A DNA stretch of 25,761 bases from a virus. The stretch lies in IMG/VR virus record IMGVR_UViG_3300035698_008883, positions 1 to 25,761 of that record. One strand, written 5' to 3'. Each line of letters opens with the position of its first letter. The first letter of the stretch is position 1. The notes beneath the pieces are model-generated. The model did no database searches, had not been told where the DNA came from, and worked only from the letters and a program-made list of their open reading frames with translations. The position numbers and the translations under genes are program-made. Of the stretch, positions 2,484-23,022 are shown one piece after another.

Positions 2484-2707
2484 ACCGATTTCATCATATC
2501 GCAGAAAACGAAAACCCGGATCAGGTTCGCGCAGAAGTCGTGAAGTTTGTCCAGGATAACTATTCAACTGAAGAGATTCTGAGGAGAGTTCCCAGGAGTG
2601 TCGCTGATGCTTTCATGGGTGACTACCTAAGCGCCACAGAGCAAAGCCTGACACGCATTCATGCTCCAGAATCTGATATCGTTATTATACAGGGAAGCCC
2701 AGAATGA
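2480..2707 (+). CDS. Unknown small early protein preceding the transposase
   Basis: This is a 75-residue protein. The frame is open from 2387, but the ATG at 2480 overlaps the upstream stop (ATGA), so I take that as the start. The protein is mildly acidic with a helical middle (EEILRRVPRSVADAFMGDYL). Its own stop overlaps the transposase ATG at 2704, so it is translationally coupled to gene A. Function is unknown. Confidence 0.55.
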   Translation: MNRFHHIAENENPDQVRAEVVKFVQDNYSTEEILRRVPRSVADAFMGDYLSATEQSLTRIHAPESDIVIIQGSPE

Positions 2708-4290
2708 CATCTTTGATCAACTTGGATGAACGCCAACGCCGGATCGCCACAGAACGTGCGGATATACTTCGCCAATATCAGACTTTGAGAAGCAATGGCC
2801 TTCCAGCCAGAGACGCTCAAAAAGAAGTCGGGATCTCAGCTGCCACTTATTCACGTTGGAACAAAGCCTTCACACATGAAGGGCTTGCTGGTCTGGCAGA
2901 TCGCACCTCTGAACGCCGGGGTGGTGCCAGCATCATGGATGAAGATCATAAGCGCCTTCTCTATGCTACAGCACTGACTCAGCACCAACCCAAACTCCTC
3001 ACCATTTACCGTGATGAGTATATGAAATTCTGTGCTTCCCTGGAACAGCAGCCAGTCAGTTATGCCACCTTTCTACGTGAGTACAATAATATCCCAGAGA
3101 CTGTGAAAACCCTCTATCGCAAAGGCTCAAAAGCTTTTGCAGATAGTAATCCTTTTCATATCCGGGACTGGAACCAGGTTAAACCCATGGATGTGATTTT
3201 CAGTGATCATGTCGAGCTGAACTTCTTTGTATATCGCAATGGCAAAATGGTCCGTCCCTGGGTGACCTGGTGGATGGATGGCCATAGTAGAAAAGGTTTA
3301 TCCTGGGTCGTTACAACCAAGCCGAATCAGGACACTATTGCACTTTCGCTGCTGCATACAATTAAGAGGTATGGCACTCCGAATTCTGCTTATGTGGATA
3401 ATGGAAAAGATTACAAATCCAAGTCCTTGATGGGTGTGAATGCTGAAGGGAAACGAGCCTCGAAAATGGAGATCATCCTGGATGAAACCATGATCCGTGG
3501 AATCTTCCAATCCCTCCACATCGAACCCATCTTTGCCACCCCCTACAACGCCAAAGCCAAGCCCATTGAACCTGCACACAACTTCCTCCATAACCTGGCT
3601 AGAAAGATCGATTATGGCTATGCAGGAGCCTGTGTTGGGGACCGACCTGAATACATGAGTTCTGGTGTCAAGGTAAGGGGCCAGAAGAAGATCTATGATC
3701 AATCCAGGATACTGCGCTGGGAAGATGTCAATGATGTCGTGGATATCATGTTTGAGAAGTACAACGCCCACGATCACCGTGGTCTCAACCAGCAGCTCAA
3801 TGCATCCGAGATGACCCCGGATGCTGCATTCGATATAGGATTTGACCAGGAGATTTTCAACACCTGGGAGAACATGGTGGATGAACGAGATCTCACTCTC
3901 CTCATGATGCGGGTAGAGGGCAGGACCTACAAGGTTCACAGCAACGGCGTTTACTTCCATAAGAACTACTATTTCAATGATCATCTCCTGGCTAAAAACA
4001 TGGAGGGTCAACAAGTAATCATCCGCTACGATCCTGCTCAATCCAATGAGATCGGTGAACCTGATAAGCTGTATATCTATGATTCCAAAGATCGCTTTGT
4101 ATGTGGTGCTCCCATGCTGGGTAAGAACCATCCTACTGAGGCAGATGCTGAAGCGTTCGCCAAGGTCGCAGAGCGCAAGAAAATTCGCCGTGAAGTAACC
4201 CGCCAACACTATGAAGAAATGACACGATTGATGCCTGAAGTCAGTCTTGAATCCATGTCATTTTCCGATCAATCAAAAGGAGTAAACTAA
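2704..4290 (+). CDS. A: MuA-like DDE transposase
   Basis: This is the transposase that binds the phage ends, cuts them and joins them to target DNA for integration and replicative transposition. It has 528 residues, against about 663 in Mu A. An N-terminal helix-turn-helix (about residues 35-60, ARDAQKEVGISAATYSRW) precedes an RNase-H-fold core. Candidate catalytic residues are Asp168 (in FSDHVEL), Asp232 (in VDNGKDY) and Glu289 (in AKPIEPAHNF). Their spacings of 64 and 57 are close to the 67 and 56 of Mu A as I recall them. The C-terminal 150 residues hold the beta-barrel-like and basic region. The shorter N-terminus may mean that the enhancer-binding domain is reduced or absent. It overlaps both neighbours by a few bases. 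Confidence 0.93.
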   Translation: MTSLINLDERQRRIATERADILRQYQTLRSNGLPARDAQKEVGISAATYSRWNKAFTHEGLAGLADRTSERRGGASIMDEDHKRLLYATALTQHQPKLLTIYRDEYMKFCASLEQQPVSYATFLREYNNIPETVKTLYRKGSKAFADSNPFHIRDWNQVKPMDVIFSDHVELNFFVYRNGKMVRPWVTWWMDGHSRKGLSWVVTTKPNQDTIALSLLHTIKRYGTPNSAYVDNGKDYKSKSLMGVNAEGKRASKMEIILDETMIRGIFQSLHIEPIFATPYNAKAKPIEPAHNFLHNLARKIDYGYAGACVGDRPEYMSSGVKVRGQKKIYDQSRILRWEDVNDVVDIMFEKYNAHDHRGLNQQLNASEMTPDAAFDIGFDQEIFNTWENMVDERDLTLLMMRVEGRTYKVHSNGVYFHKNYYFNDHLLAKNMEGQQVIIRYDPAQSNEIGEPDKLYIYDSKDRFVCGAPMLGKNHPTEADAEAFAKVAERKKIRREVTRQHYEEMTRLMPEVSLESMSFSDQSKGVN

Positions 4291-5201
4291 TGGGCAAAAC
4301 AGTCCGAGTATTATTCAATGAATACATGGAGAATTCAGACAAATCACAGGCTGAAGTTGCACGATCAGTGGGTGCTTCGGCCACGGCTTTAAGCCAATGG
4401 ATCAATGATAAATATCCCGGAGATGTTGAGAAACTTGAGCTCAGAATGCAGAGCTTTCTCTCTCGTGAATTCACCAGGCAGACCTACCGGGTCCAGGAGA
4501 GTTTTGTGAGAACCGCTCAGGCTAAGAATATCACTGAGGTATTCAACTATTGTCACACACACCAGGACATGGGAGCCATCTATGGAAGCCCAGGCCTTGG
4601 CAAATCAATCACTGCAGTTGAATATCAAAATGAACATCCCGATGTAATCCTGATGACGGCGTTCAAGGGTTTCACCAAGACAGCCATCATTGTGAGTGTT
4701 GCTCAACACCTGGGCATGGCTTCACACCTCACTGGATATCGTCAATTTCAATTGATTACCAAAGTCCTCCAGGGCAGTGATCGTCTTGTCATTATTGATG
4801 AAGCCCAGTTCCTGGCCAATGACAGCCTGGAGATTGTGAGATCATTGCATGACCAGGCAGGAATAGGTGTGGTCTATATTGGTCAGCCCAGCATGCACCG
4901 CAGGATGATGGGTAAGGAAGCCGAATACTTTGCTCAGATCACCAGTCGTCTCGGTGTGAAACTGATCGTATCCCCACCAGAATTTGAGGATGTTTGTCTC
5001 ATTGCCCAGAGTTTTAAAATTAAAGATGAGAAGATCCACAATTACCTCTGGGAAGTCGTCAACATGGATCACTGGGGCGGGTCTTTCAGAAAAGTATCTA
5101 AGCTATTGAAGATGGCAATCAGGACAGCCAGCGCAAATAAACAAGATATCACAATCCCATTTTTAAAGGATGTAGGTCGCTTCATGATCTACGCAGATTA
5201 G
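4290..5201 (+). CDS. B: MuB-like AAA+ target-capture ATPase
   Basis: This ATP-dependent DNA-binding protein captures target DNA, stimulates the transposase and gives target immunity. It has 303 residues, close to Mu B (312). The N-terminal helix-turn-helix (about residues 17-40, KSQAEVARSVGASATALSQW) is followed by the Walker A motif GSPGLGKS (99-106) and Walker B LVIIDEAQ (Asp170-Glu171). The start codon shares its A with the transposase stop codon, the usual A-B coupling. The closest alternative is an IstB/TniB-type ATPase, but the N-terminal helix-turn-helix and the MuA-type partner favour MuB. Confidence 0.92.
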   Translation: MGKTVRVLFNEYMENSDKSQAEVARSVGASATALSQWINDKYPGDVEKLELRMQSFLSREFTRQTYRVQESFVRTAQAKNITEVFNYCHTHQDMGAIYGSPGLGKSITAVEYQNEHPDVILMTAFKGFTKTAIIVSVAQHLGMASHLTGYRQFQLITKVLQGSDRLVIIDEAQFLANDSLEIVRSLHDQAGIGVVYIGQPSMHRRMMGKEAEYFAQITSRLGVKLIVSPPEFEDVCLIAQSFKIKDEKIHNYLWEVVNMDHWGGSFRKVSKLLKMAIRTASANKQDITIPFLKDVGRFMIYAD

Positions 5202-8235: not shown

Positions 8236-8262
8236 AACCCCACCTTCGAGTGGGGTTTTTTT
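8236..8262 (+). terminator. Rho-independent terminator closing the early/accessory region
   Basis: A perfect 8-bp stem AACCCCAC/GTGGGGTT with loop CTTCGA is followed by seven Ts. The T tract is on the plus strand, so it stops rightward transcription. The minus-strand operon ends with its TAA inside the T tract (8261-8263), so the site separates two convergent operons. Confidence 0.88.
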
Positions 8263-9077: not shown

Positions 9078-9535
9078 TTGATTTCTCCTAATACTTCACT
9101 TAGATCCAGCTGGACCAGCTCAGCAACATTGCTTTGTTCGCCATCATTCAAGCCCCAGAACCGGCGCTTCACTTTTGATTTACCGGCTCCCATGATATTG
9201 TGATACCGTGAGATCCTGCGGTTGCGAGAGCCCCGGATATATACGGCCACTTTGCTGGAACTCCTTGACACGAGGTGATCAATGCCATGCATCATGCCAT
9301 CAATGTTATTGAACTCCAGGTTGACTGGATGCGTGGGCAGGTTCTCTTTTCTCCGACGTACAGCGTGACCTTCAGAGTAGTCCTGGAACTCATTACCATC
9401 GATATCCTTGCCCTCAGCTGTACGCTGTTTGATGAGGAAAGCAGCAGCCAGTCCCAGCTTCTCAAGCCGGGCTTTTTGTCCCAGGGATTTCAGTGCATCC
9501 CGGATTGGTTTTAGATGAGGCGTTTGCGTGGCCAT
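9074..9535 (-). CDS. G: Mu gpG-like virion morphogenesis (tail completion) protein
   Basis: This 153-residue protein fits the phage virion morphogenesis family (Mu gpG; related to P2 gpS), which acts in joining or finishing tails. It shows the basic N-terminal helix, a FQDYSEGHAVRRRKE stretch, and the family-typical KVKRRFWGLNDGE near residue 125. It overlaps the large terminase gene by 25 bases at its start and gp36 by 4 bases at its end, so all three are coupled. Confidence 0.85.
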   Translation of the reverse strand: MATQTPHLKPIRDALKSLGQKARLEKLGLAAAFLIKQRTAEGKDIDGNEFQDYSEGHAVRRRKENLPTHPVNLEFNNIDGMMHGIDHLVSRSSSKVAVYIRGSRNRRISRYHNIMGAGKSKVKRRFWGLNDGEQSNVAELVQLDLSEVLGEIK

Positions 9536-11040
9536 CTGCGTTGCTTCTGTGATTTGAATGAACCACTGCCATTTTTCAGGCTGATGTATTCATTTAGTTT
9601 CAGGTGTGCTGTTGCTTCAGAGTCCAAACCATCCAGGAAGCGGGGGTGCGGAGATCCGAATGAGAGATACCCTTTTTTGAACAGCTCAAAATCCTTGGTT
9701 TTTATTACCTCATCAGCATAAAGCAGCTTCCCGGTTTGATGGGGGTGAACCAGCGTTAAGCAGCGTTCCTCCTTACCATTACCGAATGAGCCCTTGAGCT
9801 GTTTGGCAGAGAATAACACAATGGGGATGGGTTGGTGCTTTTTCAACCAGTCCTTATAGTAGTTGTCTGCATAGTCCCATTGGGCAAAATCATTTTCAAA
9901 GAGGAGGGTAATCCAGTTGGGTATGTTATTGCGGAGTGCATCGATGTAATCAAAGACCTGTGGCCAGCCCTCTTTGCGCATGAACATATCCAGAACATAA
10001 TCCTTGCCATCAGAGCCCCGTCCCAGGGTGGTCATGGCTTTGTATGATGCAGCAGCTGAAGTTCCTCGTGATGGATCAAGAGCCGTGATAGCACCAATGA
10101 TTTGAATAGTATTAATGGCTACACCTCGAATCCAATCAGGATCAAATATTTCACCAATCTCAACCGGGTTATCCATGTAGTCACCATCCCAGACATGGGC
10201 GGGTAATCCAGCCTCTTTTTTATTCCAGTACGCTGTGGTATAGAGGGGGTGGCCTTTCCAGTTGGTTTTGTGCTTGGCATTGAGAGCTGGAAAGCTGAAA
10301 TAGTTTTTGGGGTGTTTGGTTCTCAGGGTGACAATGGGTGCATCGGGTGTGATGCCATTCCCCAGGACGTAGCTGACCCCTTCTGGCTCCATCTGTCCAG
10401 ATACTTCAGCTTCTATGTAATTGAGTACCTTGGCCACATGAATATCCGAATTGACATTGAGGGCACTGTATAGATCATCAGCAATGGAAATCACAAAGCG
10501 CCTGAAATGATCATCGTCTATAGAGCGAAGTCCGGTTTGTACTGAGGTGGCCACGATGTGAACATTGTTTATGATGTAGTGTCCCTTCTCATCCTGGATT
10601 ACTCTGGGAGCATAATCATACATGAGGGTTTTGTTGTTGGTAATCAGCCTGTAAATCTTGGCAGTCTTCTCCCTGGAGATCCCCAATGTCTCAGCACCAA
10701 TATTGACGACACCCCCACCAGAATGCACGACATGGCGAATGGCTTTGGCCACATAAACATAGGCAGATTTCCCACATTTGCGGTGGCCGGATAAATACCA
10801 CTCACCCTGATTTTTATGCTTAACCCATTTATGGAGATCATTGAATGGGCTAAAAAATATCTGGGGGAAATAGATTTGGCAGAATTTGAACTCATCAGCA
10901 TCCGCTTTGGCGCGTCTCTCTGCCTTTTTCTCAGGTGTCAGATCTGATTCAACATTTGACCCAACCAGCAGGTCATCAAGAAACTCCTCAAATCGGCGAT
11001 TCTGGGCGGTCAGTTGTTTATTGGGGGGATTTATCGACAC
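9511..11040 (-). CDS. Terminase large subunit (Mu gp28-like)
   Basis: This is the motor that packages phage DNA into the head and cuts it by the headful mechanism. It has 509 residues. The ATPase domain shows a Walker A-like GHRKCGKS at 85-92 and a hydrophobic strand ending in acidic residues, RFVISIADD (181-189), as Walker B. The RNase-H-like nuclease begins around ITALDPSRGTS with Asp322. It starts with GTG, preceded by GAGGTGG at good spacing. It lies downstream of the small terminase candidate, as in Mu, but on the minus strand here. Confidence 0.9.
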   Translation of the reverse strand: MSINPPNKQLTAQNRRFEEFLDDLLVGSNVESDLTPEKKAERRAKADADEFKFCQIYFPQIFFSPFNDLHKWVKHKNQGEWYLSGHRKCGKSAYVYVAKAIRHVVHSGGGVVNIGAETLGISREKTAKIYRLITNNKTLMYDYAPRVIQDEKGHYIINNVHIVATSVQTGLRSIDDDHFRRFVISIADDLYSALNVNSDIHVAKVLNYIEAEVSGQMEPEGVSYVLGNGITPDAPIVTLRTKHPKNYFSFPALNAKHKTNWKGHPLYTTAYWNKKEAGLPAHVWDGDYMDNPVEIGEIFDPDWIRGVAINTIQIIGAITALDPSRGTSAAASYKAMTTLGRGSDGKDYVLDMFMRKEGWPQVFDYIDALRNNIPNWITLLFENDFAQWDYADNYYKDWLKKHQPIPIVLFSAKQLKGSFGNGKEERCLTLVHPHQTGKLLYADEVIKTKDFELFKKGYLSFGSPHPRFLDGLDSEATAHLKLNEYISLKNGSGSFKSQKQRRWPRKRLI

Positions 11041-11057
11041 TTGCCACCTCGTGAGTT

Positions 11058-11086
11058 TTTAAACGGGGTTTAAACGCTTTTAAACG
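11058..11086. repeat. Three phased copies of TTTAAACG
   Basis: TTTAAACG occurs at 11058-11065, 11069-11076 and 11079-11086, that is at spacings of 11 and 10 bp, close to one helical turn. The array fills the gap between the small and large terminase genes and slightly overlaps the former's stop. It could be a binding array, perhaps for packaging initiation, but function is inference. Confidence 0.4.
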
Positions 11087-11556
11087 GAGTTCAGACCATG
11101 GAGGTTGAGTTGAGCATCCTTGAAGTCCTTGGAAATTTGAATCAGTCCTGGAGTGAGTAAATCTGGTTTTGTTTTCTGGATGAATTTCAGGAATTCTTCC
11201 AGCATGGAAAACATGGCGGGGATCTGACTCTTCTGAGATGAGATTTTCGTGAGTGAATTCAGGTATTTTGCCAGAGCATCGGCGGTTGAGTTGTCCTTGA
11301 TTCCATTATCAAGGAGTTCTGAGATTTTCTCCATGATCTTGGCCTCAATGGATCGAGGAGAAAGCTCTAGAATTTTGCGGTGTTGCCACTCTTTGCGAGC
11401 CTTCTCCCACTCACCGACTTTTGCCCACCTGGTAATCGTCTGCCAGCTGGGTTTGCCGTTCATGAGCAGGGCAATACTTCGGGGGGTCTTGCTTTCCTCG
11501 ATATAGAGCAGCTGACATTTCAGCCGCATGCTTTCAGAATAGTTTTTTCGTGCCAT
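11080..11556 (-). CDS. Putative terminase small subunit with helix-turn-helix
   Basis: This 158-residue basic protein has an N-terminal helix-turn-helix (about residues 8-50: LKCQLLYIEESKTPRSIALL, then PSWQTITRWAKVGEWEKAR), of the kind that starts many small terminase subunits, which recognise packaging sites. The C-terminal two thirds is helical and could oligomerise. It lies directly upstream of the large terminase, supporting this role (Mu gp27 position). Its start overlaps the last base of the portal gene. The specific family (DUF3486 or DUF1804) is not certain. Confidence 0.72.
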   Translation of the reverse strand: MARKNYSESMRLKCQLLYIEESKTPRSIALLMNGKPSWQTITRWAKVGEWEKARKEWQHRKILELSPRSIEAKIMEKISELLDNGIKDNSTADALAKYLNSLTKISSQKSQIPAMFSMLEEFLKFIQKTKPDLLTPGLIQISKDFKDAQLNLHGLNSV

Positions 11557-12665
11557 TAATAGCCACTCAGAGACCGGTCTTTTTTTAAGACCTCTTGACT
11601 GTCTGAAACCCTCAATCCCAGTTTGGCAAATTCGGAGGGGTCAACTTCACCTCCCAGATCTGCAAAGGACTGGATGATCTCCAGCTGGTCGGATATTGAA
11701 ACAGCATCTTTTTTGTCAATGACAAACTCAGGGGCTTCACCAACTCCAACATTACGAGACCAGATCATCTCCACCAGCTGCTGCATATATGGCTCGATGT
11801 AGTAGATGTCATCCAGGATAATGTCACGCTTGGCGTAATAGGTTGAGTTGTTTTCTCCTACCTGGAGTCCCGCTGAATTCTTTACCGCATTGGCATGACC
11901 AAGAATTGTAATAGCAAAGGCGGTATCACAAACGTCATTGAATTTGTCAAAGTCACCGGTTGTGCGGGCTGATTCTACTATCTCAATATCGGTATTGTTG
12001 GGCTTAATACCACGAGAACTGGAGGCAACTGCATTGACGGCTGTATTCAGCTCATCTATGATGGGTTGTTGTGCTCCAGGGGGATATGAACCCAGAATAA
12101 TTCCTTCTCCGAATCGCTCTAGGAAAGAGGCCCATGCTTCCAGGCCAAAGGTCTTGAGGATGTATTCACGCAGAACTGGAAGCAGGACAGGGATCTCATC
12201 ATTCAAGCATACCAGAGCGGTATCCTGGATCTCTTTGGTGGTTTTACCAAAGTCCAGGCGTAGCTCATCTTTGACAAATTTGAAATACTTATGAGGAAGC
12301 GGCTTGAATGAAACTGGGACTTGCCAACCGTCCACTATTTCCCATTCAAAGTCGATGACAGAAAAGCCTTTCAAGACACCCACCTGGATGGACTTGAATA
12401 GTTTTCTGGGTTTCAACTTCTTGATGATTTGGGAAATTCTGGCTGCATCATCTGCCCTGGTACCATGTGAAATTGTGAATTGTCGCTGGAACCCGGCTCG
12501 TCTCCCATTCAGGCATCCAAAAACTTGAGAGTCTGTTTCAGCGATATTCATCATCTCAATTAGATCTCGTGAATCTCCCCGCCTATAGGATTTATAGGCT
12601 CTATTATAGAAGCTGGGTGAGAACCGAACTACTGCATCGTGTATCTTTTCATTGACCTTTATCAT
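11556..12665 (-). CDS. Portal protein (Mu gp29-like, DUF935)
   Basis: This is the DUF935 portal, the dodecameric channel at the head vertex through which DNA passes. It has 369 residues from the ATG at 12665. The frame continues to an ATG at 12722 with GAGG upstream, but the extra 19 residues do not look like portal sequence and overlap a palindrome, so I prefer the shorter start although its own ribosome-binding site is poor. Typical features are an N-terminal helix, FEWEIVDGWQVPVSFKPLPHKYFKF near residues 107-131, LEAWASFLERFGEG, and the GENNSTYYAKRDI segment. It is the first gene of the inverted operon, followed by the terminase genes. Confidence 0.85.
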   Translation of the reverse strand: MIKVNEKIHDAVVRFSPSFYNRAYKSYRRGDSRDLIEMMNIAETDSQVFGCLNGRRAGFQRQFTISHGTRADDAARISQIIKKLKPRKLFKSIQVGVLKGFSVIDFEWEIVDGWQVPVSFKPLPHKYFKFVKDELRLDFGKTTKEIQDTALVCLNDEIPVLLPVLREYILKTFGLEAWASFLERFGEGIILGSYPPGAQQPIIDELNTAVNAVASSSRGIKPNNTDIEIVESARTTGDFDKFNDVCDTAFAITILGHANAVKNSAGLQVGENNSTYYAKRDIILDDIYYIEPYMQQLVEMIWSRNVGVGEAPEFVIDKKDAVSISDQLEIIQSFADLGGEVDPSEFAKLGLRVSDSQEVLKKDRSLSGY

Positions 12666-12710
12666 GACGCAAGTTAGACTTAGGTGAAATTTCCCCATCA
12701 AAGTAAAGGT

Positions 12711-12726
12711 TCGAATGTACATTCGA
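12711..12726. promoter_or_regulatory. Perfect 16-bp palindrome, candidate operator
   Basis: TCGAATGTACATTCGA is its own reverse complement over all 16 bases. It lies between the divergent portal and protease operons, just upstream of the preferred portal start. Position and symmetry suggest a site for a dimeric regulator controlling late genes. No protein is identified for it. Confidence 0.55.
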
Positions 12727-12737
12727 CCTCGGATAGT

Positions 12738-12770
12738 TGTGATAGGCTAAGCCCTTTGCCTAAAATCACA
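12738..12770. promoter_or_regulatory. Imperfect dyad with possible promoter before protease gene
   Basis: TGTGAT-AGGC at 12738-12747 pairs with GCCT-(AAA)-ATCACA at 12758-12770, leaving a 10-base loop. The same stretch holds a possible plus-strand promoter, TTGTGA (12737-12742), an 18-bp spacer and TAAAAT (12761-12766). If that is used, transcription would begin about at the GTG start at 12773. The promoter is a weak match; the dyad is directly visible. Confidence 0.4.
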
Positions 12771-12772
12771 GC

Positions 12773-13768
12773 GTGAAAAGAAAAACTACATACATCCGCA
12801 ACAACGACTCTCGGATTACACGGGGGACACTGAAGCCATCTCTGCGGTTCAATGCCACACCGGTTGAAGAACCCACTGAGGGCTTTATCAAGATCGCTCC
12901 CTTTGGTGACTTCCAAGGTCATCCCCAGGGCGGCTATGTTATGAGTAAAGAGCGAGCTGATGAGATGGTCAAGAACCATGGTATCATGGGCATTGATCTT
13001 CTTTTTGATTTTGATCATTCATCCCTCTGGGGTGAAACCAAAGCAGCTGGTTGGTCTGCCAACCTGGAAGCTCGTGATGACGGCTTGTATGTCAGTTATC
13101 CTGAATGGACCAAATCAGGTAAGGAAGCTATAGAGAATCGTGAATACCGGTATTTCTCACCGGTGTTTGATTTTATGGCTGAGGACCAGGAAGGCAAGAC
13201 AATCGGAGCCAGGTTCATTAGTGTTGCTTTGACAAACACCCCCTTCTTCGAGGGTCTGATAGATCCAGTGGGTAATTCATCAACTATGGAGAGTGATAAA
13301 ATGACTAAGAAACAATTAGAAAAATTGGGCTTGGATGAAAATGCCACTGAAGCTGAGATCGATGCTGCTTTAGATGCCCTTGAAGCCAAGGTGCCTGTTG
13401 AAGATCCAGAAGGTGAAGATCCAGAAGATGGGGAACCCACAGCCAATGCTCGCATGGATGCTCTGGAAAACCGTTTTGATAAACAGAACAAAGATGCAGC
13501 TGATTCCAAGGCTGAAGTCCTGGTAAACAGTGCCATCACCGAAGGCAAGATCCTGCCAGCTGATAAAGATATTTATATCAACTCAGCCAAGCTGGATTAT
13601 GACGCCACCAAAACCAAGCTGGAGGGATTGAAAGCCAATTCAGCCATGCCAAGTAAGCTGGCCACTCCTGGTGACGATGAGTTGGGTGGTAAGAAAGTAA
13701 ATAGCACTCAGGCTGCTGCAGACTTTTTCAAGGATGCTGGCCGTGCCCCAATAGGAAAGGCAAACTAG
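12773..13768 (+). CDS. I: Mu gpI-like prohead protease with C-terminal scaffold
   Basis: This 331-residue protein combines the prohead protease and scaffold, as in Mu I. The N-terminal half shows family features: FIKIAPFGDFQGHP, LLFDFDHSSLWGE (residues about 78-90, with an Asp-His pair), EYRYFSPVFDF and FISVALTNTPFF. The C-terminal half is charged, helical and Ala/Glu-rich, as expected of a scaffold. It starts with GTG without a clear ribosome-binding site, so the start is less certain. The next in-frame ATG is inside the conserved part. It precedes the major capsid gene by 2 bases. Confidence 0.85.
   Translation: MKRKTTYIRNNDSRITRGTLKPSLRFNATPVEEPTEGFIKIAPFGDFQGHPQGGYVMSKERADEMVKNHGIMGIDLLFDFDHSSLWGETKAAGWSANLEARDDGLYVSYPEWTKSGKEAIENREYRYFSPVFDFMAEDQEGKTIGARFISVALTNTPFFEGLIDPVGNSSTMESDKMTKKQLEKLGLDENATEAEIDAALDALEAKVPVEDPEGEDPEDGEPTANARMDALENRFDKQNKDAADSKAEVLVNSAITEGKILPADKDIYINSAKLDYDATKTKLEGLKANSAMPSKLATPGDDELGGKKVNSTQAAADFFKDAGRAPIGKAN
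13301..13768 (+). CDS. Candidate internal scaffold product (Mu gpZ-like)
   Basis: An in-frame ATG at 13301 (Met177, MTKKQLEKLG) follows GGAGAG at good spacing, exactly where the protease domain ends and the helical acidic region begins. In Mu, the scaffold Z is the C-terminal part of I made from an internal start. The same arrangement is likely here, giving a 155-residue scaffold. An alternative start is the ATG at 13286. This is inferred from the ribosome-binding site and the Mu precedent. Confidence 0.55.
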   Translation: MTKKQLEKLGLDENATEAEIDAALDALEAKVPVEDPEGEDPEDGEPTANARMDALENRFDKQNKDAADSKAEVLVNSAITEGKILPADKDIYINSAKLDYDATKTKLEGLKANSAMPSKLATPGDDELGGKKVNSTQAAADFFKDAGRAPIGKAN

Positions 13769-13770
13769 TC

Positions 13771-14706
13771 ATGAAACTAACACAAATTTCTCCCAGTGAT
13801 CCTGTAAGCATTCTTGCTTTAGAGGGTCTTTCTATGACTGCTCCGATTTTGGCAGACATGGAGTTTTATTCCAAGGCTGGTGCAGCTGATAGCATTAAAA
13901 AAGCTCGGAAAGCTGCTGCCAAAGCCAAGATCACCCGCTCTATAAATGAGGACAACGTTCCTGCAGCTCCTACCAACAGTTATGATCCAGTTGCAAAGAA
14001 GGTGGTTTCATTTGAGGCGATGGTCGATGTGGTGTTGGAAGATCGTGGCGAGGATCTTGAAACAGAACTTGCCCAGCAAACACGTCTTGAAGCAATTCAG
14101 GCCGGGTATCGGTTCCAGACCTTGTGTTTCACAGGTGATGTGGCTGGCGATGCTGAAGATTTCGACGGGTTCGAGAATCTAGTCCATGATGACTACACCA
14201 AGCAGGTGTCAACCAATGGAATTATTGTTCCTGTGGGAAATTCAGACGCGGTTATGGCTGCCCAAATGGTAGCCATCGAGGAACTCCAGAAGCTCTTTGC
14301 CATGATCCCTGGTGGAGCCAGTCATGCGTACATGAATGAGTATCTGAAGATTCGTATTCTGACAGTTGCAAAACACCTGGGGTATTATAGCCAATCAAAG
14401 GATGAGCTGGGTGCGGAGATCGAAAAGATTGGCAGCGTAATCATCCGTGGTGCAGGATATGCCGCTGATGGAACTCCCCTGCTTCCATTTGGTGATACTG
14501 TGGGCACCTCGGATATAACAAGTCCCATCTATACCACTCGCTGGGGTGAGGGCATCGACATGACCGCCCTGACTTCCAAGGGATTGGTTGGTCGCTATGC
14601 TGGCCAGGATGGAAACTTCCTTAAAAACAATGTCAATCTGGATATGGCCTTGGCCCTCCAGAACGACATGGCTTTGTATAAATCTGAAGGATGGAGACTG
14701 GTTTAA
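13771..14706 (+). CDS. T: Major capsid protein (Mu gpT-like)
   Basis: This 311-residue protein is close in length to Mu T (about 305) and follows the protease/scaffold gene as in Mu. It has an acidic-basic helical N-terminus (AGAADSIKKARKAAAKAKIT), a central FEAMVDVVLEDRG segment, the DFDGFENLV loop typical of HK97-type capsids, IPGGASHAYMNEYLKIRIL, and a C-terminal TTRWGEGIDM/GLVGR section. It would form the icosahedral shell. No strong ribosome-binding site is seen in the short gap, so it is probably coupled to the upstream gene. Confidence 0.87.
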   Translation: MKLTQISPSDPVSILALEGLSMTAPILADMEFYSKAGAADSIKKARKAAAKAKITRSINEDNVPAAPTNSYDPVAKKVVSFEAMVDVVLEDRGEDLETELAQQTRLEAIQAGYRFQTLCFTGDVAGDAEDFDGFENLVHDDYTKQVSTNGIIVPVGNSDAVMAAQMVAIEELQKLFAMIPGGASHAYMNEYLKIRILTVAKHLGYYSQSKDELGAEIEKIGSVIIRGAGYAADGTPLLPFGDTVGTSDITSPIYTTRWGEGIDMTALTSKGLVGRYAGQDGNFLKNNVNLDMALALQNDMALYKSEGWRLV

Positions 14707-15738: not shown

Positions 15739-16144
15739 GAAATATTTCAAAACCAAAGAGATCCAGACGGGATTCTCAAAGGTCGAATATCGGCTTCAGG
15801 TCATCGTCATGGCCTTAGCTGGTTTCATGGCCATGCGCTTTGGTCGTCAGATCGTGATCACCTCCACCTTTCGGAAAGATGACAAGGGAGTTCATGGATC
15901 TGGACATGGATGTGATATCCGGTGTAAGGACTGGAGTCCCCAGGAGCGTGAGGAAGCACAGGCTTTTTTGCAATCCATCCACTATGAAGGAAAATATAAA
16001 ACACTCCTGGTTCATGGTAAGGGTGATAACGTTCACTTTCATATCCAGACTAGCTGGAGACGACCTGGTATAATTTTTATCCAGAAAAATGTTCTGGATA
16101 TGATAGAGATCCTCAAGAAAGATCCTGAAAAGGAAGTAGCATGA
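15731..16144 (+). CDS. M15-type peptidase, probable endolysin
   Basis: This 137-residue protein has the zinc-peptidase pattern of small M15-like (VanY/DD-carboxypeptidase-type) enzymes. HGSGHGCDIR puts His55, His59 and Asp62 in place, and VHFHI supplies His102 or His104. It probably cleaves peptidoglycan peptides to release progeny. There is no signal peptide, which agrees with release through a holin. It starts at GTG 15731, overlapping the gene before, and its stop overlaps the ATG of the diversified protein. A structural role such as a tail peptidase is less likely. Confidence 0.75.
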   Translation: MDKKYFKTKEIQTGFSKVEYRLQVIVMALAGFMAMRFGRQIVITSTFRKDDKGVHGSGHGCDIRCKDWSPQEREEAQAFLQSIHYEGKYKTLLVHGKGDNVHFHIQTSWRRPGIIFIQKNVLDMIEILKKDPEKEVA

Positions 16145-17823
16145 GACGCAAGGTCCAGAAGGTTGGAATCAATTTCGGCACCATTGCAGAAGGTTTAGCA
16201 GCTGCAAAAGTTGGTGATCTGGTCCAGGTATTACCTGGTCAGTATGAGGAGGAAGATCTTCAACTCAAGAACGGTGTAAATATCGAATTCTTACCAGGTG
16301 CTGAGATGATCCAGTCTGCTGAATCTATTGCAGCTGAAGAAGAGTACACCGCTTTTACTGATGGTGGCGAAGATGTTGTTTGCTCAATCGGTGGCCGTCC
16401 CACTTACAATTTTTATGGTGCTTCAGAGTTGATCGAATTAACTGGAGCTGCTTCAGTAGTCACAATCTACGGTAAAGCTGAATATGTCTACACAGAGGCT
16501 TTTACTTGGGCGTCAGCCGCAAAACTTATCTTCGAACGCTCAGTTATGAGTGATGAGTTTGGCAATGTAATATTTCCTGGCAACCTCATCGTAACCGGCG
16601 GCATCTCAGCTGCACCATATTACGGTGTTTCCTGGGATGAATCAGCGGACAGTTACGCCCGTACCGGTGCATTGACAGGTGAGGCCACTGGCGAATCACC
16701 ATCACTATTCATGCCGATACACGCCGGGATGAAACGGTGTGTCCTGGATGATTCAGGAAACGTGCTTTATTTTCTTGATCCAGATGACAGTACTAAAAAG
16801 GACAATGGCCAACCCGCCACAATTGATGATGAATCACATGGCCAGGTTATGGTCCAGGTTCCTAAATTTTGGTTTAAATACAGCTATTCAGGAACAACCC
16901 ACACATGGGAAATTGCATCTGAGCCGGTAGACGGATTCACCATTCATCCCGCCTTTTTAAAAGATGGGCAGGAGGTTGATTCCCGCTATGTGGGTGCATA
17001 CGATGGCAGCCTCTACGATGCGAGCGCAGGGGCCATGGTCCCTAGTGGGTCCATTGTAACCAGTCTATATGCCGCCGGTGACAAACTGTGTTCTATCTCC
17101 GGGCAGTATCCCAAAACAAATGAAACCAGAGCCGAGAACCGAGGAGCGGCATCACAACGGGGAGCCGGTTGGCGAATGATGGATTATGATTTAATGAGTG
17201 CAGTACAATTACTCTACCTGGTTGAATATGCTGATTTCAATAGTCAATCAATGATTGGTAACGGTAGAACAACGCTATCAGGGGGCGGTTGGACAGCCGG
17301 TTCATACATCGGGATTGCAGGTTTATCCAATGGTGATGGCAATAGGACAAATTCAATTCATACCGGTGCATTGGGTGATACGGATTATATGACATACAGA
17401 GGAATTGAAAACTTCTTTGGGAATATCTGGATTTTTATTGATGGTGTAAACATCTACAATAATGAAGCCGGTGCATATAGCCGCCTGTTTGCCTGTAATG
17501 ATGAAGCCAATTTTGCAGATGACACCCAGGCCAATTATGAACAGGTTGGTGATTTAGTATTATTGGATGGCTATCAATCAACCCTGGCACAGGTCATGCG
17601 TGGCTTTTTACCGTTGACAGTTGGGGCCACAAGTTCAACAAAGGTCTCCGATTACTTTTATACCTACTATGACAATCTGGGAAGCGGCTGGACAGAGGAT
17701 TACCGGGTGCTCCTCTTGGGCGGTTGTGCGAGTGCCGGTTCGACGGCGGGCGTTTTCTACGTGAATGCGCCTTACGCTTCTTCGTATGGCACTGTGAGCG
17801 TTGGGGCGCGGCTGTGCTTCTAA
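16141..17823 (+). CDS. DGR target protein, probable receptor-binding/tail fibre with C-type lectin-like tip
   Basis: This 560-residue protein carries the variable repeat at its extreme C-terminus (residues 523-560). The N-terminal 60 or so residues (AAAKVGDLVQVLPGQYEEED and KNGVNIEFLPGAEM) resemble the opening of a beta-helix/pectate-lyase-like domain, which may attach it to the virion. Residues about 160-560 fit a C-type lectin-like (formylglycine-generating-enzyme type) fold, common in DGR targets: YYGVSWDESADSYARTG early on, FFGNIW late, then the RVLLLGG...VGARLCF end. Variable positions are 528, 529, 531-533, 544, 545, 549-551, 553, 554 and 557. It starts in an ATGA overlap with the peptidase. 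A receptor-binding role is inferred from family knowledge. Confidence 0.85.
   Translation: MRRKVQKVGINFGTIAEGLAAAKVGDLVQVLPGQYEEEDLQLKNGVNIEFLPGAEMIQSAESIAAEEEYTAFTDGGEDVVCSIGGRPTYNFYGASELIELTGAASVVTIYGKAEYVYTEAFTWASAAKLIFERSVMSDEFGNVIFPGNLIVTGGISAAPYYGVSWDESADSYARTGALTGEATGESPSLFMPIHAGMKRCVLDDSGNVLYFLDPDDSTKKDNGQPATIDDESHGQVMVQVPKFWFKYSYSGTTHTWEIASEPVDGFTIHPAFLKDGQEVDSRYVGAYDGSLYDASAGAMVPSGSIVTSLYAAGDKLCSISGQYPKTNETRAENRGAASQRGAGWRMMDYDLMSAVQLLYLVEYADFNSQSMIGNGRTTLSGGGWTAGSYIGIAGLSNGDGNRTNSIHTGALGDTDYMTYRGIENFFGNIWIFIDGVNIYNNEAGAYSRLFACNDEANFADDTQANYEQVGDLVLLDGYQSTLAQVMRGFLPLTVGATSSTKVSDYFYTYYDNLGSGWTEDYRVLLLGGCASAGSTAGVFYVNAPYASSYGTVSVGARLCF
17706..17819 (+). repeat. DGR variable repeat (VR)
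   Basis: This is a 114-bp segment at the 3' end of the target gene, ending just before its last codon and stop. It aligns without gaps to the template repeat at 17849-17962. All 19 differences are at adenines in the template (11 to G, 5 to C, 3 to T), and every G, C and T of the template is kept. The match ends at 17820, where C faces G in the template. Thirteen residues change and three changes are silent. Confidence 0.96.
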
Positions 17824-17856
17824 AATTTTACAGGTTTTTGCGGGAGCAGGTGCTCC
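17821..17856. promoter_or_regulatory. Palindromes between VR and TR, candidate DGR target-recognition structure
   Basis: The stop codon begins a perfect 10-bp palindrome, TAAAATTTTA (17821-17830). Further on, GGAGCA-GG-TGCTCC (17843-17856) is an inverted repeat whose right half lies in the first bases of the template repeat. In the Bordetella phage DGR a hairpin or cruciform just after the variable repeat helps retrohoming. A similar role here is inference. Confidence 0.4.
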
Positions 17857-17962
17857 TATTGGGCAGTAATGCGAATAACAGTTCGACGGCAGGCGTTTTC
17901 TACGTGAATGCGAATAACGCTTCTTCGAATGACAATGTGAACATTGGGGCGCAGCTATGCTT
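17849..17962 (+). repeat. DGR template repeat (TR), within the presumed template RNA
   Basis: This is the non-varied donor copy, 143 bp downstream of the variable repeat in the same orientation. It contains 28 adenines, of which 19 differ in VR. If read in the VR frame it carries nine AAT/AAC codons, eight of which are altered in the VR. AAY codons are typical of DGR templates because adenine changes in them cannot create stop codons. It would be transcribed, reverse transcribed with errors at A, and copied into VR. The template RNA probably extends toward the RT gene (to about 18066), where no other gene is seen. Confidence 0.95.
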
Positions 17963-18066
17963 GAAGTCGTAACCGTAAAAACCCTGCCTCTTGGCAAAAC
18001 ACAAAGCGAATCCCGCAAGGTGTTAGTAGATCCAATGGATCCGAAAGCTCTGGGAAATCCAAGCAC

Positions 18067-19026
18067 ATGAAACGCATTGGATATTTATACGAGGCTGTTT
18101 GCTCATTGGAGAATCTCCATGCAGCCCACAAACGGGCCAGCCGGGGCAAACAGCATTATAGGGAAGTGAAGATGATCAACGCCGACCCGGAAATGTATTT
18201 GCACCAACTAAGGGAAATGCTGGTCAATAAGACGTTCAAAAACTCGTCTTATACGAGCATGATCAAAAACGAATATGGCAAGGTTCGTAAAATATTAAAA
18301 CTGCCATATTTCCCTGACAGGATCATCCACCATGCCATTATGAACGTGGTCGAACCAATCTGGACAGCGCAACTAATCCGTGACACCTGGGCATCAATCA
18401 AAGGGCGTGGCATTCATAAGGGTGTCCGCAGGATCAAACAATCATTATTGGATAGAGAGAACACTCAATTTTGTTTAAAAATGGATGTCCGCAAATTTTA
18501 TCCATCAGTTGATAATGTGATCATGAAGCAGATCATCAGAAACAAAATAAAAGATGAAAATCTTTTGTGGCTGATTGATGAGATTATTGATTCATCGGAT
18601 GGTCTGCCTATTGGTAACTATCTATCTCAATTCATGTCAAACATCTACCTGTCAGGGCTGGACCACTGGATAAAAGAGACGTTACAAGCAAAATATTATT
18701 TCCGTTACTGTGATGACATGGTACTACTGGGTAGTAATAAAGCTGAGTTGCACGAACAGCGGAAAATGATTGGTGGCTATCTAAAAGAGAATCTGAATCT
18801 ACAATTAAAACATGATTGGCAGGTTTTCCCCGTGGATGTCCGGGGCATTGATTTTCTGGGATACAGATTCTTCCATGATTACACATTAGTGAGAAAATCA
18901 ATCGTCAAACGGTTCAAAAAGAAACATAGACAAAACAGCACTAAATCAATCCCGGCTTATTGGGGTTGGTTCAAATGGGCTGATTCACATAATTTGGTTA
19001 AAAAATACGAGGTGCAATATGGATAA
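18067..19026 (+). CDS. DGR reverse transcriptase
   Basis: This 319-residue reverse transcriptase copies the template RNA with errors at adenines. The N-terminal MKRIGYLYEAVCSLENLHAA is characteristic of DGR RTs. Palm motifs are in order: CLKMDVRKFYPSVD (Asp140), GLPIGNYLSQ (about 179-188, the DGR variant of RT motif 4) and the catalytic YCDD (214-217), followed by DFLGYRF. It lies 104 bp after the template repeat on the same strand. No maturase, endonuclease or long accessory domain is attached. Its stop overlaps the next gene by 8 bases, so the DGR and the downstream genes are probably cotranscribed. Confidence 0.95.
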   Translation: MKRIGYLYEAVCSLENLHAAHKRASRGKQHYREVKMINADPEMYLHQLREMLVNKTFKNSSYTSMIKNEYGKVRKILKLPYFPDRIIHHAIMNVVEPIWTAQLIRDTWASIKGRGIHKGVRRIKQSLLDRENTQFCLKMDVRKFYPSVDNVIMKQIIRNKIKDENLLWLIDEIIDSSDGLPIGNYLSQFMSNIYLSGLDHWIKETLQAKYYFRYCDDMVLLGSNKAELHEQRKMIGGYLKENLNLQLKHDWQVFPVDVRGIDFLGYRFFHDYTLVRKSIVKRFKKKHRQNSTKSIPAYWGWFKWADSHNLVKKYEVQYG

Positions 19027-19336
19027 GGGTGCGAGCATTCAAAAACCTGATTTAGTGGCAGCCAGAAACGGAATGGTTCAGATCCGTTATAATGTACAGT
19101 CCGTTACGGTTGGCGAGGGTGATGATCAGCGGGATGAGTATCAATATCAATATATTGAGGTCAACCCGAACTCCACCAGAAAGCAGATCATTGACGCATT
19201 AATCAGAGCAAAATATGATGTGAATGATGAGTTTGGATTGTTGGCCCTGCCATATGCAGATCCTGAATACGTGGCATATCGTGATTTTATTGCTGACTGT
19301 AAAACAATAGCCGATGAGGTGCTAGGTGTTTTGTGA
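19019..19336 (+). CDS. Unknown small acidic protein downstream of the RT
   Basis: This is a 105-residue acidic protein with GAGG before its ATG and an 8-base overlap with the RT gene. The middle is beta-rich (GMVQIRYNVQSVTVGEGDD), followed by helical segments (RKQIIDALIRAKYDVNDE and EYVAYRDFIADCKTIADEVL). It does not look like Avd, which is basic and four-helical. The pattern recalls small phage tail-fibre-associated proteins, but I cannot name a family. It could be a chaperone for the diversified protein or simply a tail-module gene. Confidence 0.6.
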   Translation: MDKGASIQKPDLVAARNGMVQIRYNVQSVTVGEGDDQRDEYQYQYIEVNPNSTRKQIIDALIRAKYDVNDEFGLLALPYADPEYVAYRDFIADCKTIADEVLGVL

Positions 19337-19626
19337 AAAATTTCGGAGATTTCGCAACCGAGGAACAGCCTCTGGATGGCGACAAGGAACGGATAGACAA
19401 CATTCTGAACCGGTTGATTTTAGTCACCGGCTTCAGGGTGAAAAATAGCCAATACAGTAAGAATGAATCGGGAAAGTATTTAACATTGCAATTCAGTATA
19501 GAGAATCAGACCAAAATAATATTCACCGGTTCGGATGTATTGATTGGCCAGCTGGAGAGATACGGTCCTGAGATTCCCTTTGCCGCGACCATCAGGAAAA
19601 TTAACCGGTATTATACCCTAGCTTAG
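19333..19626 (+). CDS. Unknown small phage protein
   Basis: This 97-residue protein overlaps the preceding gene by 4 bases and starts with GTG. The N-terminus is helical; the rest is beta-rich with alternating strands (LILVTGFRVKNSQYSK, KYLTLQFSIENQTKIIFTG, then IPFAATIRKINRYYTL). It could form a small barrel, possibly an OB-like fold. I recall the general pattern from phage hypothetical proteins but no function. It lies between the RT and the tail genes, so it could serve either. Confidence 0.6.
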   Translation: MKNFGDFATEEQPLDGDKERIDNILNRLILVTGFRVKNSQYSKNESGKYLTLQFSIENQTKIIFTGSDVLIGQLERYGPEIPFAATIRKINRYYTLA

Positions 19627-20399: not shown

Positions 20400-20587
20400 A
20401 AAACCCGAAAGAATCAGAGCCACAAGAAGACTTAGCCTGGCACCGCCTGATACACAATCTGGTCGTGCTAGGCTTTGGTTCATATAGAGAGTGCGAGGAT
20501 GGAAATTTAGCTGATGCTTTGATCTTCCTCCTGCTTCGAACCAGGGAGACTGCGCAAGATAAAATCAGAAAACATCTAGACTCATGA
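20345..20587 (+). CDS. Frameshift extension of the tail assembly chaperone (gpGT-type)
   Basis: This is the -1 frame joined to the first 80 codons of the chaperone at the heptamer. It adds 80 residues to make a 160-residue fusion. The extension reads RLIVRAFREVREAEQTFLEN, then WHRLIHNLVVLGFGSYRECE and DALIFLLLRTRETAQDK, a normal helical protein with no start codon of its own needed. It fills the otherwise unexplained gap between 20399 and the tape measure. By analogy with lambda G/GT and Mu 41, both forms are needed for tail assembly. Confidence 0.8.
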   Translation, partial: RLIVRAFREVREAEQTFLENPKESEPQEDLAWHRLIHNLVVLGFGSYRECEDGNLADALIFLLLRTRETAQDKIRKHLDS

Positions 20588-23022
20588 GCGACTTCACAAT
20601 AAATATTAAACTGAACATGATCGAGTCCCTCGAAGGGGTCGATAATGCTGAGAAAAAGGTCTCCGGGTTCACCGGAAAGGCTGAGGTCGGATTTGGTTCA
20701 CTTATTGGCAAGATGTCAGCAGCTTCATTTGGGATCAACCAGATCTCACAAGTTGCTCAAAAGGGTATGGATATGCTATCCGCACCCCTGGATAAATTCT
20801 CTGAATACGAATCACGGCTAATCAATGTTAAATCTCTAGGTGTTGAGAACATCGAGGAGCTAGGAGATGCTGTTTTAGATCTCACAGGTCGCATCCCTAA
20901 AAGCGCCAACGAACTCTCTGAATCACTCTATGATGTGGTGTCAGCTGGTGTGGATTCTGCCGACCAGATGACCTACCTGGAATCAAATGCAAAAGCAGCC
21001 GTTGCGGGTCTCGCTGATACAGGTGATTCAATTGCTCTTTCCAGCTCAATCATAAAGGCTTATGGGAAGGACTGGTCTGAGACAGATAGTATTCTCGATC
21101 AAGCATTCATGACGGTGAAACTGGGTCAAACAACTTTTCCTGAACTTTCCACAAATATGAACTCTGTGACCCCACAGGCTGCTTCTTTAAATATCCAAAC
21201 TCAGGAGCTTTTTGGAACCTTTGCAACCCTCACCGGTGTGACGGGGAATGCTTCTGAGGTTTCCACTCAATTGAAGGGTGTGTTTACCGGACTTTCTGCT
21301 CCCACAAAAGAACTAACAGATCTGGCACAAAAGCATGGGTTTGCAACTGTTGAACAGATGACAAAGAGCAAAGGATTAGCTGGAGTCTTAGGCATTGTTA
21401 AAGATGCCACAGGTGGATCATCTGCCAAGATGAACGAGCTGTTTGGAAGCTCTGAGGCCGTCACCGCAATGTTGGCTTTGACTGGATCTCAATACGATAC
21501 ATTTATAGATAAAACCAATCAGATGAATGAGTCAACTGGTGCCATGTCTGAAGCCTTTGATGACAATGCAGCATCCTCAGAAAATGCTGAACAGATGCTC
21601 AAAAACAAATTTGATAAAGCTCTGATCGGACTAGGTGAAAGATTGATGCCTGTGAAGCTCTCTCTCATGGAGTTTGGCAGTGAGCTGATGGATGGTATTG
21701 ACTGGGAACCCATCCTCAATGGTATTGATACCACCATCATTTTCTTAGGTGATATGTGGAACTTTATTGAGCCACTAATCACCGCCCTGTGGGATCTCGG
21801 TGTTGCTGTTGCTAAGGCGGTTCCCTGGGATATCATTGGCAGTGCTATCGGTGTGATTGTTGATTGGCTGTCAAAGGCCATTTCAGGATTCACCAGGCTC
21901 CTCAAATTGGTTGGTCTACTGGATGAAGAAACAGCAAAAGTACCTGGAACATCAGAGGCTGCTTCAGTCGCTCATGATGGTGAAACAAAAGCAATCGGAC
22001 GCAAGGCTGATGCCATTGAAAGAACCACCAGGAAAACCCGTGAATTGAACGTGGAGCGCAGCAAGACACCACCACCGGTAGCTGCTGGATCTACACCCGC
22101 ATCAACTGGATCTACACCTGAACCAGAAGGCACTTCCTCAGATGAATCAAACCCGGTTGAGTTGGAACGCATCTCTCTGGAGGATCGTCTTGAGCTAAAT
22201 GATCTATACTTTCAGAATGCTCAGATCCTGGAGGAGGATTACTATCAGAACAAATTCACTCTCATGGATGAGTTGGCAGCCACCTATGATATAAACAATG
22301 CTGATGAGGTAAAGAATCACCTCAAGCTGACTGCTGATAAGCTCAAGGTTGAGAAGAAATATCAAGCCAGTAAGGGCAAGCTTGAGAAGAGTGCCTATAT
22401 GGGTACGCTCTCACTTTACGCCCAGATGCAAAGTGCTTTCCAGGGTAAATCTGAAGCCATGTTCAATGTGGGTAAAGCTGCCAGTCTTGCTCAGGCTGGA
22501 GTGAATACTTATGAGGCTGCTACGGCTGCCTTTAAATCCATGGTTGGTATCCCTGTTGTTGGTCCATCTCTGGGAGCTGCCGCTGCTGCTGCTGCTGTTG
22601 CTCTTGGCCTGGCAAATGTCTCAGAGATCGCCTCACAAAAATTTGAGAAACGAAAAGCTGGTGGGTTCCTGGGTGATGGTTCCAGAACCATGTCCACAGG
22701 TGATTTTGGAGATGGTGAGGATCTCATGATCATTGCCAATTCAAAAGAGTATATCATCAATGCTGAATCCACAGCACGTCACAGAGGACTCCTAGAGTAT
22801 ATCAACCATTACAACCCACCCAAGATGGCTGCAGGTGGTCTTGTGGGTGGTGGTGCAGGTGCTCCCTCACTTGGTCTTTCTCCGGATGATCTGGAAGACG
22901 CCATGCGCAGGGCTCTTTCGGATTCCACCATCAAGATCTCTGGTGAAACCAGACTTGATAATGGTGATATATACCTTTCCTGGGAGAGTGGAAAACTAGA
23001 GATCGAGGCGACCAGAGTATGA
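20584..23022 (+). CDS. Tail tape-measure protein
   Basis: This 812-residue protein sets tail length. The N-terminal 350 residues match the TP901-type tape-measure core: YESRLINVKSLGVENIEELG, LYDVVSAGVDSADQMTYLES, AYGKDWSETDSILDQAF and LFGTFATLTGVTG. Hydrophobic membrane-like segments follow at about 390-430 (WNFIEPLITALWDLGVAVAK), then a Thr/Pro/Ser-rich linker (about 495-520), a helical stretch and an Ala-rich segment near 655-685. The C-terminus has Gly-rich KAGGFLGDG and EYIINAESTARHRGLLEYI, common in this family. It overlaps the frameshift product and the next gene by 4 bases each. Its length is compatible with a tail of roughly 120 nm, if 1.5 angstroms per residue holds. Confidence 0.92.
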   Translation: MSDFTINIKLNMIESLEGVDNAEKKVSGFTGKAEVGFGSLIGKMSAASFGINQISQVAQKGMDMLSAPLDKFSEYESRLINVKSLGVENIEELGDAVLDLTGRIPKSANELSESLYDVVSAGVDSADQMTYLESNAKAAVAGLADTGDSIALSSSIIKAYGKDWSETDSILDQAFMTVKLGQTTFPELSTNMNSVTPQAASLNIQTQELFGTFATLTGVTGNASEVSTQLKGVFTGLSAPTKELTDLAQKHGFATVEQMTKSKGLAGVLGIVKDATGGSSAKMNELFGSSEAVTAMLALTGSQYDTFIDKTNQMNESTGAMSEAFDDNAASSENAEQMLKNKFDKALIGLGERLMPVKLSLMEFGSELMDGIDWEPILNGIDTTIIFLGDMWNFIEPLITALWDLGVAVAKAVPWDIIGSAIGVIVDWLSKAISGFTRLLKLVGLLDEETAKVPGTSEAASVAHDGETKAIGRKADAIERTTRKTRELNVERSKTPPPVAAGSTPASTGSTPEPEGTSSDESNPVELERISLEDRLELNDLYFQNAQILEEDYYQNKFTLMDELAATYDINNADEVKNHLKLTADKLKVEKKYQASKGKLEKSAYMGTLSLYAQMQSAFQGKSEAMFNVGKAASLAQAGVNTYEAATAAFKSMVGIPVVGPSLGAAAAAAAVALGLANVSEIASQKFEKRKAGGFLGDGSRTMSTGDFGDGEDLMIIANSKEYIINAESTARHRGLLEYINHYNPPKMAAGGLVGGGAGAPSLGLSPDDLEDAMRRALSDSTIKISGETRLDNGDIYLSWESGKLEIEATRV

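What the first reader, a model, noticed from the sequence alone, without database searches (positions are those of the whole stretch)
16141..19026. Complete diversity-generating retroelement inside a Mu-like prophage
A target gene with a C-terminal variable repeat, a template repeat 29 bp downstream and a DGR-type reverse transcriptase are all present and in order. VR and TR differ at 19 of 114 positions and each difference is at a TR adenine, which cannot be chance. The cassette therefore looks functional and recently active. A Mu-like phage with a DGR is known (Bacteroides Hankyphage), so the combination has precedent, but this one sits in a different gene order.
Basis: partly seen in the sequence, partly recalled or inferred. 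Interest (0 to 1): 0.9.

Follow-up and report, generated by a model that had tools for sequence, protein, structure and literature searches.

The report
Active hypermutation cassette in Mu-like phage
This phage genome carries a complete, recently active diversity-generating retroelement that rewrites the tip of a probable host-recognition tail protein; the core is a known kind of system, but it lacks the usual helper protein (Avd) and travels instead with a small, uncharacterised OB-fold protein that elsewhere is fused to the same kind of reverse transcriptase.

Summary
Observation confirmed. VR (17706-17819) and TR (17849-17962) differ at 19 of 114 sites, all at TR adenines (p 3.4e-15). The reverse transcriptase is intact (YCDD, GxxxSQ) and resembles the BPP-1 DGR enzyme (E 2.8e-43). 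Relative L002 has an identical TR and a 99% identical RT; its VR differs from the window's at 17 sites, all TR adenines, against 1 change in 1,056 flanking bases. Five further relatives share one TR, and their VRs also vary mainly at adenines. The target's C-terminal part matches the Thermus DGR variable protein (C-type lectin fold, Z 17.1).

(1) There is no Avd gene. (2) The TR-RT spacer is Rfam RT-17 RNA. (3) ORF 19333-19626 (97 aa) is a predicted OB fold tied to DGRs: 71 of 76 viral loci found by this protein alone carry the RT, three are cut off by contig ends, two keep DGR remnants. It is fused to the RT in one contig and apparently in Hankyphage. The cassette also swaps between unrelated phages.

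'Prophage' is unproven. This is a new member of the Avd-less DGR group; an OB partner in place of Avd is the testable novelty.

The parts
16141..17823 (+). Target gene, 560 aa, probable receptor-binding tail protein. N-terminal ~145 aa not shared with relatives; C-terminal ~416 aa conserved, C-type-lectin-like DGR variable protein
   Evidence: phrog_5302 tail protein 2e-95; AF2 model residues 195-560 match TaqVP 5vf4, Z 17.1 over 242 residues
16573..19620 (+). Exchangeable cassette: block shared with relatives, unrelated sequence on both sides
   Evidence: blastn blocks and 60-bp identity profile
17706..17819 (+). Variable repeat (VR), 3' end of target gene
17809..17819 (+). IMH-like 3' end of VR (CGGCTGTGCTT), fixed in all 8 VRs; inferred
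17849..17962 (+). Template repeat (TR); identical in L002, one common TR in L005-L009
17952..17962 (+). IMH*-like 3' end of TR (CAGCTATGCTT); inferred
17980..18070 (+). TR-RT spacer RNA, Rfam RF03020 RT-17
   Evidence: 43.1 bits, gathering score 40.4
17985..17996 (+). Conserved hairpin TGCC-TCTT-GGCA of the spacer RNA
   Evidence: alignment of 20 loci; matching pattern upstream of the RT in 51 of 86 loci
18067..19026 (+). DGR-type reverse transcriptase, 319 aa; YCDD at 18706-18717, IGNYLSQ motif
   Evidence: RVT_1 1.7e-14; phrog_1423 1.7e-115; PDB 8ub7 2.8e-43
19019..19336 (+). Small ORF, 105 aa, travels with the cassette; function unknown
   Evidence: weak phrog_11557
19333..19626 (+). OB-fold protein, 97 aa, DGR-linked candidate accessory protein (OB97)
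   Evidence: linkage; fold; RT fusions
2704..5201 (+). Mu-type transposase A and ATPase B (context)
   Evidence: DDE_2 4.7e-13, Mu-transpos_C 2.4e-11; Phage-MuB_C 8.6e-8
9511..14706 (.). Terminase, Mu-like portal (minus strand), Mu-like protease and major capsid (plus strand) (context)
   Evidence: Portal_Mu 2.9e-40, Mu-like_Pro 1.5e-37; phrog_38 and phrog_212
20584..23022 (+). Tail tape measure protein (context)
   Evidence: PhageMin_Tail 2.2e-29

Best explanation
A functional diversity-generating retroelement. RNA from TR plus the structured RT-17 spacer is copied by the RT, which misincorporates opposite template adenines; the mutated cDNA replaces VR, so the ligand-binding end of the C-type-lectin-like tail protein varies between phage lineages while TR stays constant, probably retuning host attachment. 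Shown here: the parts, the A-restricted VR variation against a constant TR in natural relatives, the lectin-like fold, the spacer RNA family, the absence of a detectable Avd, and the linkage of OB97 to DGRs. Inferred: that OB97 binds RNA or cDNA and serves the RT in place of Avd; that the target is the receptor-binding protein; the exact IMH. The confidence given is for the DGR itself; for OB97 as the RT's working partner it is about 0.6.
For: A-only VR/TR differences. Window vs L002: 17 VR changes, all at TR adenines, TR identical; 1 change in 1,056 flanking bp (Fisher p 4.6e-17). L005-L009, one shared TR: 21 of 28 A sites vary against 5 of 88 others (p 8e-13). RT matches the BPP-1 DGR RT. 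Target matches TaqVP. RT-17 RNA. OB97: 71 of 76 loci found by this protein alone have the DGR RT, the rest are truncated or DGR remnants; natural RT-OB fusion L077, OB i-E 2e-19, and Hankyphage RT C-terminus i-E 1.4e-7; OB fold pLDDT 93.8, with SSB-type OB proteins among the best structural matches; Avd model over cut-off in 0 of 50 OB-bearing viral records while BPP-1 scores 2e-32.
Against: Activity is inferred from relatives, not measured. OB97 function is inferred from linkage, fusion and fold only; structural Z scores (about 6) are middling and a shared OB fold does not prove nucleic-acid binding. Many records are fragments, so absence of Avd is tested only in what is held. A few VR changes in L005-L009 fall at non-A bases. 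No significant stem-loop was found after VR.
Confidence: 0.93

Rival explanations
1. The cassette is a relic: VR differs from TR through past activity, but the system no longer works.
For: Only one window sequence is available; decayed cassettes do exist (L081 lost its RT, L046 keeps only target and OB97).
Against: RT is intact and nearly unchanged in L002, where VR has 17 A-site changes and the flanks almost none, so VR changed much faster than everything around it since the split.
Confidence: 0.06
2. OB97 is a tail or lysis-region gene that is merely next to the RT, not a DGR accessory protein.
For: Other small ORFs (105 aa) also travel with the cassette; OB97 persists in two loci without RT.
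Against: It adjoins the RT across very different target types and in bacterial and archaeal viruses, changes order with the 105-aa ORF yet stays in the cassette, and is fused to the RT.
Confidence: 0.25
3. VR and TR are an ordinary tandem duplication that drifted.
For: Two adjacent similar copies.
Against: All 19 differences sit at one base type in one copy (p 3.4e-15), and relatives repeat the pattern.
Confidence: 0.005

Closest known systems
Bordetella phage BPP-1 DGR
   Same: Target-VR-TR-RT order; homologous RT (2.8e-43 to 8ub7); adenine-specific mutagenesis; structured RNA between TR and RT
   Different: BPP-1 has Avd and Rfam Phage_DGR spacer RNA; the window has no Avd, RT-17 RNA and an OB-fold ORF
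Bacteroides Hankyphage (p00) DGR
   Same: Mu-like transposable phage with a DGR on a tail gene (PMC6199706); its RT carries a C-terminal domain matching OB97 (i-E 1.4e-7) and no Avd by NF033474
   Different: OB domain fused, not separate; RT only 35% identical; DGR at the right end of the genome behind a very large tail gene, here between the small ORF 15731-16144 (possibly an endolysin) and the tail genes; papers label a small Hankyphage ORF as Avd (PMC6199706 by size and charge, PMC12135933)
crAssphage LMMB DGR (Wu lineage 3 as described in PMC7290462)
   Same: TG-VR-TR-RT without avd; C-type lectin target
   Different: RT about 41% identical with its own C-terminal extension, not significantly matched to OB97 by sequence
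ANMV-1 archaeal virus DGR
   Same: Homolog of OB97 directly after the RT (45% identity)
   Different: Archaeal virus; distant RT; its paper (PMC4372165) draws an Avd
Thermus aquaticus TaqVP (5vf4)
   Same: Fold of the target's C-terminal part, Z 17.1
   Different: 20% identity; a bacterial protein, not a phage tail protein

Membership tests
Diversity-generating retroelement | RT of the DGR clade with intact catalytic motif and SQ motif | tested here: met
   YCDD and IGNYLSQ read in the sequence
Diversity-generating retroelement | VR/TR pair with differences confined to TR adenines | tested here: met
   19 of 19
Diversity-generating retroelement | TR constant, VR variable across relatives | tested here: met
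Diversity-generating retroelement | Target with C-type lectin (or Ig) fold carrying VR | tested here: met
   TaqVP Z 17.1; the VR part itself (526-560) has low confidence
Diversity-generating retroelement | Structured spacer RNA between TR and RT | tested here: met
   RF03020 RT-17
Diversity-generating retroelement | IMH / IMH* at repeat 3' ends | tested here: inconclusive
   Fixed end differences fit; function not testable
Diversity-generating retroelement | Mutagenic retrohoming observed | not testable with these tools
   needs reads or culture
Avd-type DGR (BPP-1 type) | avd gene | tested here: not met
   NF033474 absent from the window, BPP-1 positive; the only other ORFs of the cassette are the 105-aa ORF and OB97
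Mu-like transposable phage | MuA and MuB transposition genes, Mu-type head genes | tested here: met
Mu-like transposable phage | Integrated prophage with host junctions | not testable with these tools
   window is the entire record
Wu et al. 2018 DGR accessory protein without Pfam assignment | Sequence homology of OB97 with that family | not testable with these tools
   paper not held; its existence is known from PMC10053308

The most novel reading that the evidence does not exclude
A large branch of DGRs, in phages of many bacterial phyla and in archaeal viruses, uses an OB-fold nucleic-acid-binding protein (OB97, separate or fused to the RT, as in Hankyphage) instead of the helical Avd protein, often together with RT-17-type spacer RNA.
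Probability: 0.5. Interest if true: 0.72.

Novelty: new member of a known kind. Interest (0 to 1): 0.5.

Why it matters
It adds a DGR whose activity is visible in nature, in a phage group with few DGR examples. About a quarter of DGRs are said to lack a known accessory gene (PMC7290462). The OB-fold ORF gives a concrete, small candidate for what replaces Avd there, supported by independent linkage and by natural fusions, and the locus links the Rfam family RT-17 to DGRs. It also shows that target tip, TR, RNA, RT and accessory genes move between unrelated phages as one block, joined to different tail-anchoring domains.

Tried and rejected
PF05635 as an Avd test: it failed on BPP-1 itself, so it was dropped for NF033474. 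The cr7_1 and LMMB RT C-termini as OB97 homologs: a cr7_1 RT model appears in the structure search, but sequence scores are no better than shuffles, so only a lead. BPP-1 bbp4 (overlaps brt) as an OB97 homolog: no similarity. Stem-loop after VR: not better than shuffles. Covariation in the spacer RNA: the hairpin is invariant, so no covariation. RT tree: the five Avd-type RTs group together (94/77) inside a spread of OB-bearing RTs, but with long branches and biased sampling, so not relied on. Whole-cassette composition: GC 0.447 against 0.456, not an outlier. Literature: Wu 2018 and the paper I believe described RT-17 (10.1093/nar/gkx699) are not held; no held paper found that names an OB-fold DGR protein.

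Full report
Observation. The repeat pair is exactly as described: VR 17706-17819, TR 17849-17962, 29 bp apart. All 19 mismatches lie at TR adenines, of which there are 28 in 114 bases, p 3.4e-15. The RT ORF 18067-19026 is intact, with YCDD and the IGNYLSQ motif. It matches RVT_1 (1.7e-14), phage RTs of phrog_1423 (1.7e-115) and the solved BPP-1 DGR RT 8ub7 (2.8e-43).

Activity. I found relatives in IMG/VR. L002 has an identical TR and a 99% identical RT. Its VR differs from the window's at 17 of 116 positions, all TR adenines, while the 359 bases before VR hold 1 change and the 697 after it none (Fisher p 4.6e-17). Five relatives with RT 76% identical to the window's, L005-L009, share one identical TR; their VRs vary at 21 of 28 adenine sites and at 5 of 88 other sites (p 8e-13). 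Five adenine positions are G in every VR. The last two (17810, 17814) make the 3' ends of VR and TR permanently different (CGGCTGTGCTT against CAGCTATGCTT), which fits IMH and IMH*; this is inference. Activity is shown for the lineage, not for this one contig in real time.

Target. The 560-aa target hits a phage tail family. The AF2 model is confident over most of residues 156-510 and poor over the N-terminus and the VR tip. Its best solved match is the Thermus aquaticus DGR variable protein, Z 17.1 over 242 residues, model 195-560. So the target is a C-type-lectin-like variable protein; that it binds the host receptor is inferred from position and family.

Cassette borders. Homology of L002, L003 and L005-L009 to the window runs from about 16573-16603 (inside the target gene, near the encoded sequence GNLIVTGGI) to about 19540-19620 (end of OB97), and flanking sequence is unrelated where it is held. 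The relatives read in full (L002, L006) have different target N-termini. The target tip, TR, RNA, RT and two small genes therefore move together between phages. Of 50 records checked, only the window and two others (behind L033 and L042) have a Mu transposase. The Mu-like record behind L033 keeps the DGR next to the same tail genes, with OB97 and the 105-aa ORF in swapped order. A comparable N-terminal shuffling of DGR targets within one bacterium is reported in PMC10907252.

Spacer RNA. 17980-18070 is Rfam RF03020, RT-17 RNA (43.1 bits). BPP-1 has the different family RF03022 Phage_DGR in the same place. The hairpin TGCC-TCTT-GGCA is invariant or nearly so in aligned relatives, and a matching pattern lies upstream of the RT in 51 of 86 loci.

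OB97, the unexpected part. The 97-aa ORF at 19333-19626 has no Pfam, NCBIfam or clear PHROG hit. A search of 2.9 million viral contigs with this protein family alone found 76 loci. 71 carry a DGR RT in the held flank. Of the other five, three are cut by the contig end, L081 keeps VR, TR and target but has lost the RT, and L046 keeps the target. Over 88 loci from all searches, OB97 adjoins or overlaps the RT in 49 and is one small ORF away in 28. Only two of 50,697 annotated phage records match the window's protein, both archaeal viruses and both directly after a DGR RT. In L077 RT and OB97 form one 439-aa protein. The Hankyphage p00 RT ends in a domain that matches the OB97 profile (residues 327-421, i-E 1.4e-7). 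The AF2 model (pLDDT 93.8) has the OB arrangement of five strands with a helix after the third; its best solved matches are OB domains including SSB (3lgj, Z 6.3), LEF-3 and PriB, and its best predicted viral matches are RT proteins. Z near 6 supports a shared fold, not a function.

Avd. The Avd model NF033474 finds BPP-1, BalMu-1, ACA2, YPCBV-1 and VP58.5 with E 3e-29 or better. It finds nothing over cut-off in the window, 47 further OB97-bearing IMG/VR records, vir525 and ANMV-1, nor in Hankyphage. None of the five Avd phages has a significant OB97 match. Other DGR phages tested (for example cr52_1, cr50_1, Perkons, Idris, Epona and a Helicobacter prophage) show neither by these models, so the split is not a complete classification.

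Known or new. DGRs, Mu-like phages with DGRs and avd-less DGRs of the order target-TR-RT are known (PMC6199706, PMC12135933, PMC7290462). PMC10053308 states that Wu et al. 2018 suggested one further DGR-associated protein without Pfam or CDD assignment. OB97 may be that protein; I could not read the paper, and from memory I think the authors called one such gene CH1. I therefore file the cassette as a new member of a known kind and put the OB-partner idea in the novel case.

Limits. The record is a 25.8-kb linear fragment with no host junction identified, so 'prophage' is unproven. Absence statements cover only the bases held. OB97's role rests on linkage, fusion and fold.

Noticed in passing
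window 8261-12722: Portal, terminase and further head genes lie on the minus strand between plus-strand replication and capsid genes, an arrangement that looks unusual for a Mu-like genome.
   Followed up: no
window 24959-25516: D12-class adenine methyltransferase ORF matching only profile positions 140-243 of 253; it looks truncated at its 5' end.
   Followed up: no
L081 3719-4288: RT lost while VR, TR, target and most of OB97 remain: a DGR caught in decay.
   Followed up: partly
L012 3523-4786: Apparently several VR-bearing ORFs served by one TR, with a different target type but the same RT-OB97 pair.
   Followed up: partly
L094 3001-4239 (crAssphage cr7_1): RT frame contains in-frame TAG codons (probably recoded stops) and a C-terminal extension; a cr7_1 RT model matched OB97 in the structure search, but sequence scores do not support homology.
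   Followed up: partly
window 19019-19336: 105-aa ORF that also travels with the cassette; similar-looking small ORFs sit after DGR RTs in crAss-like phages.
   Followed up: partly
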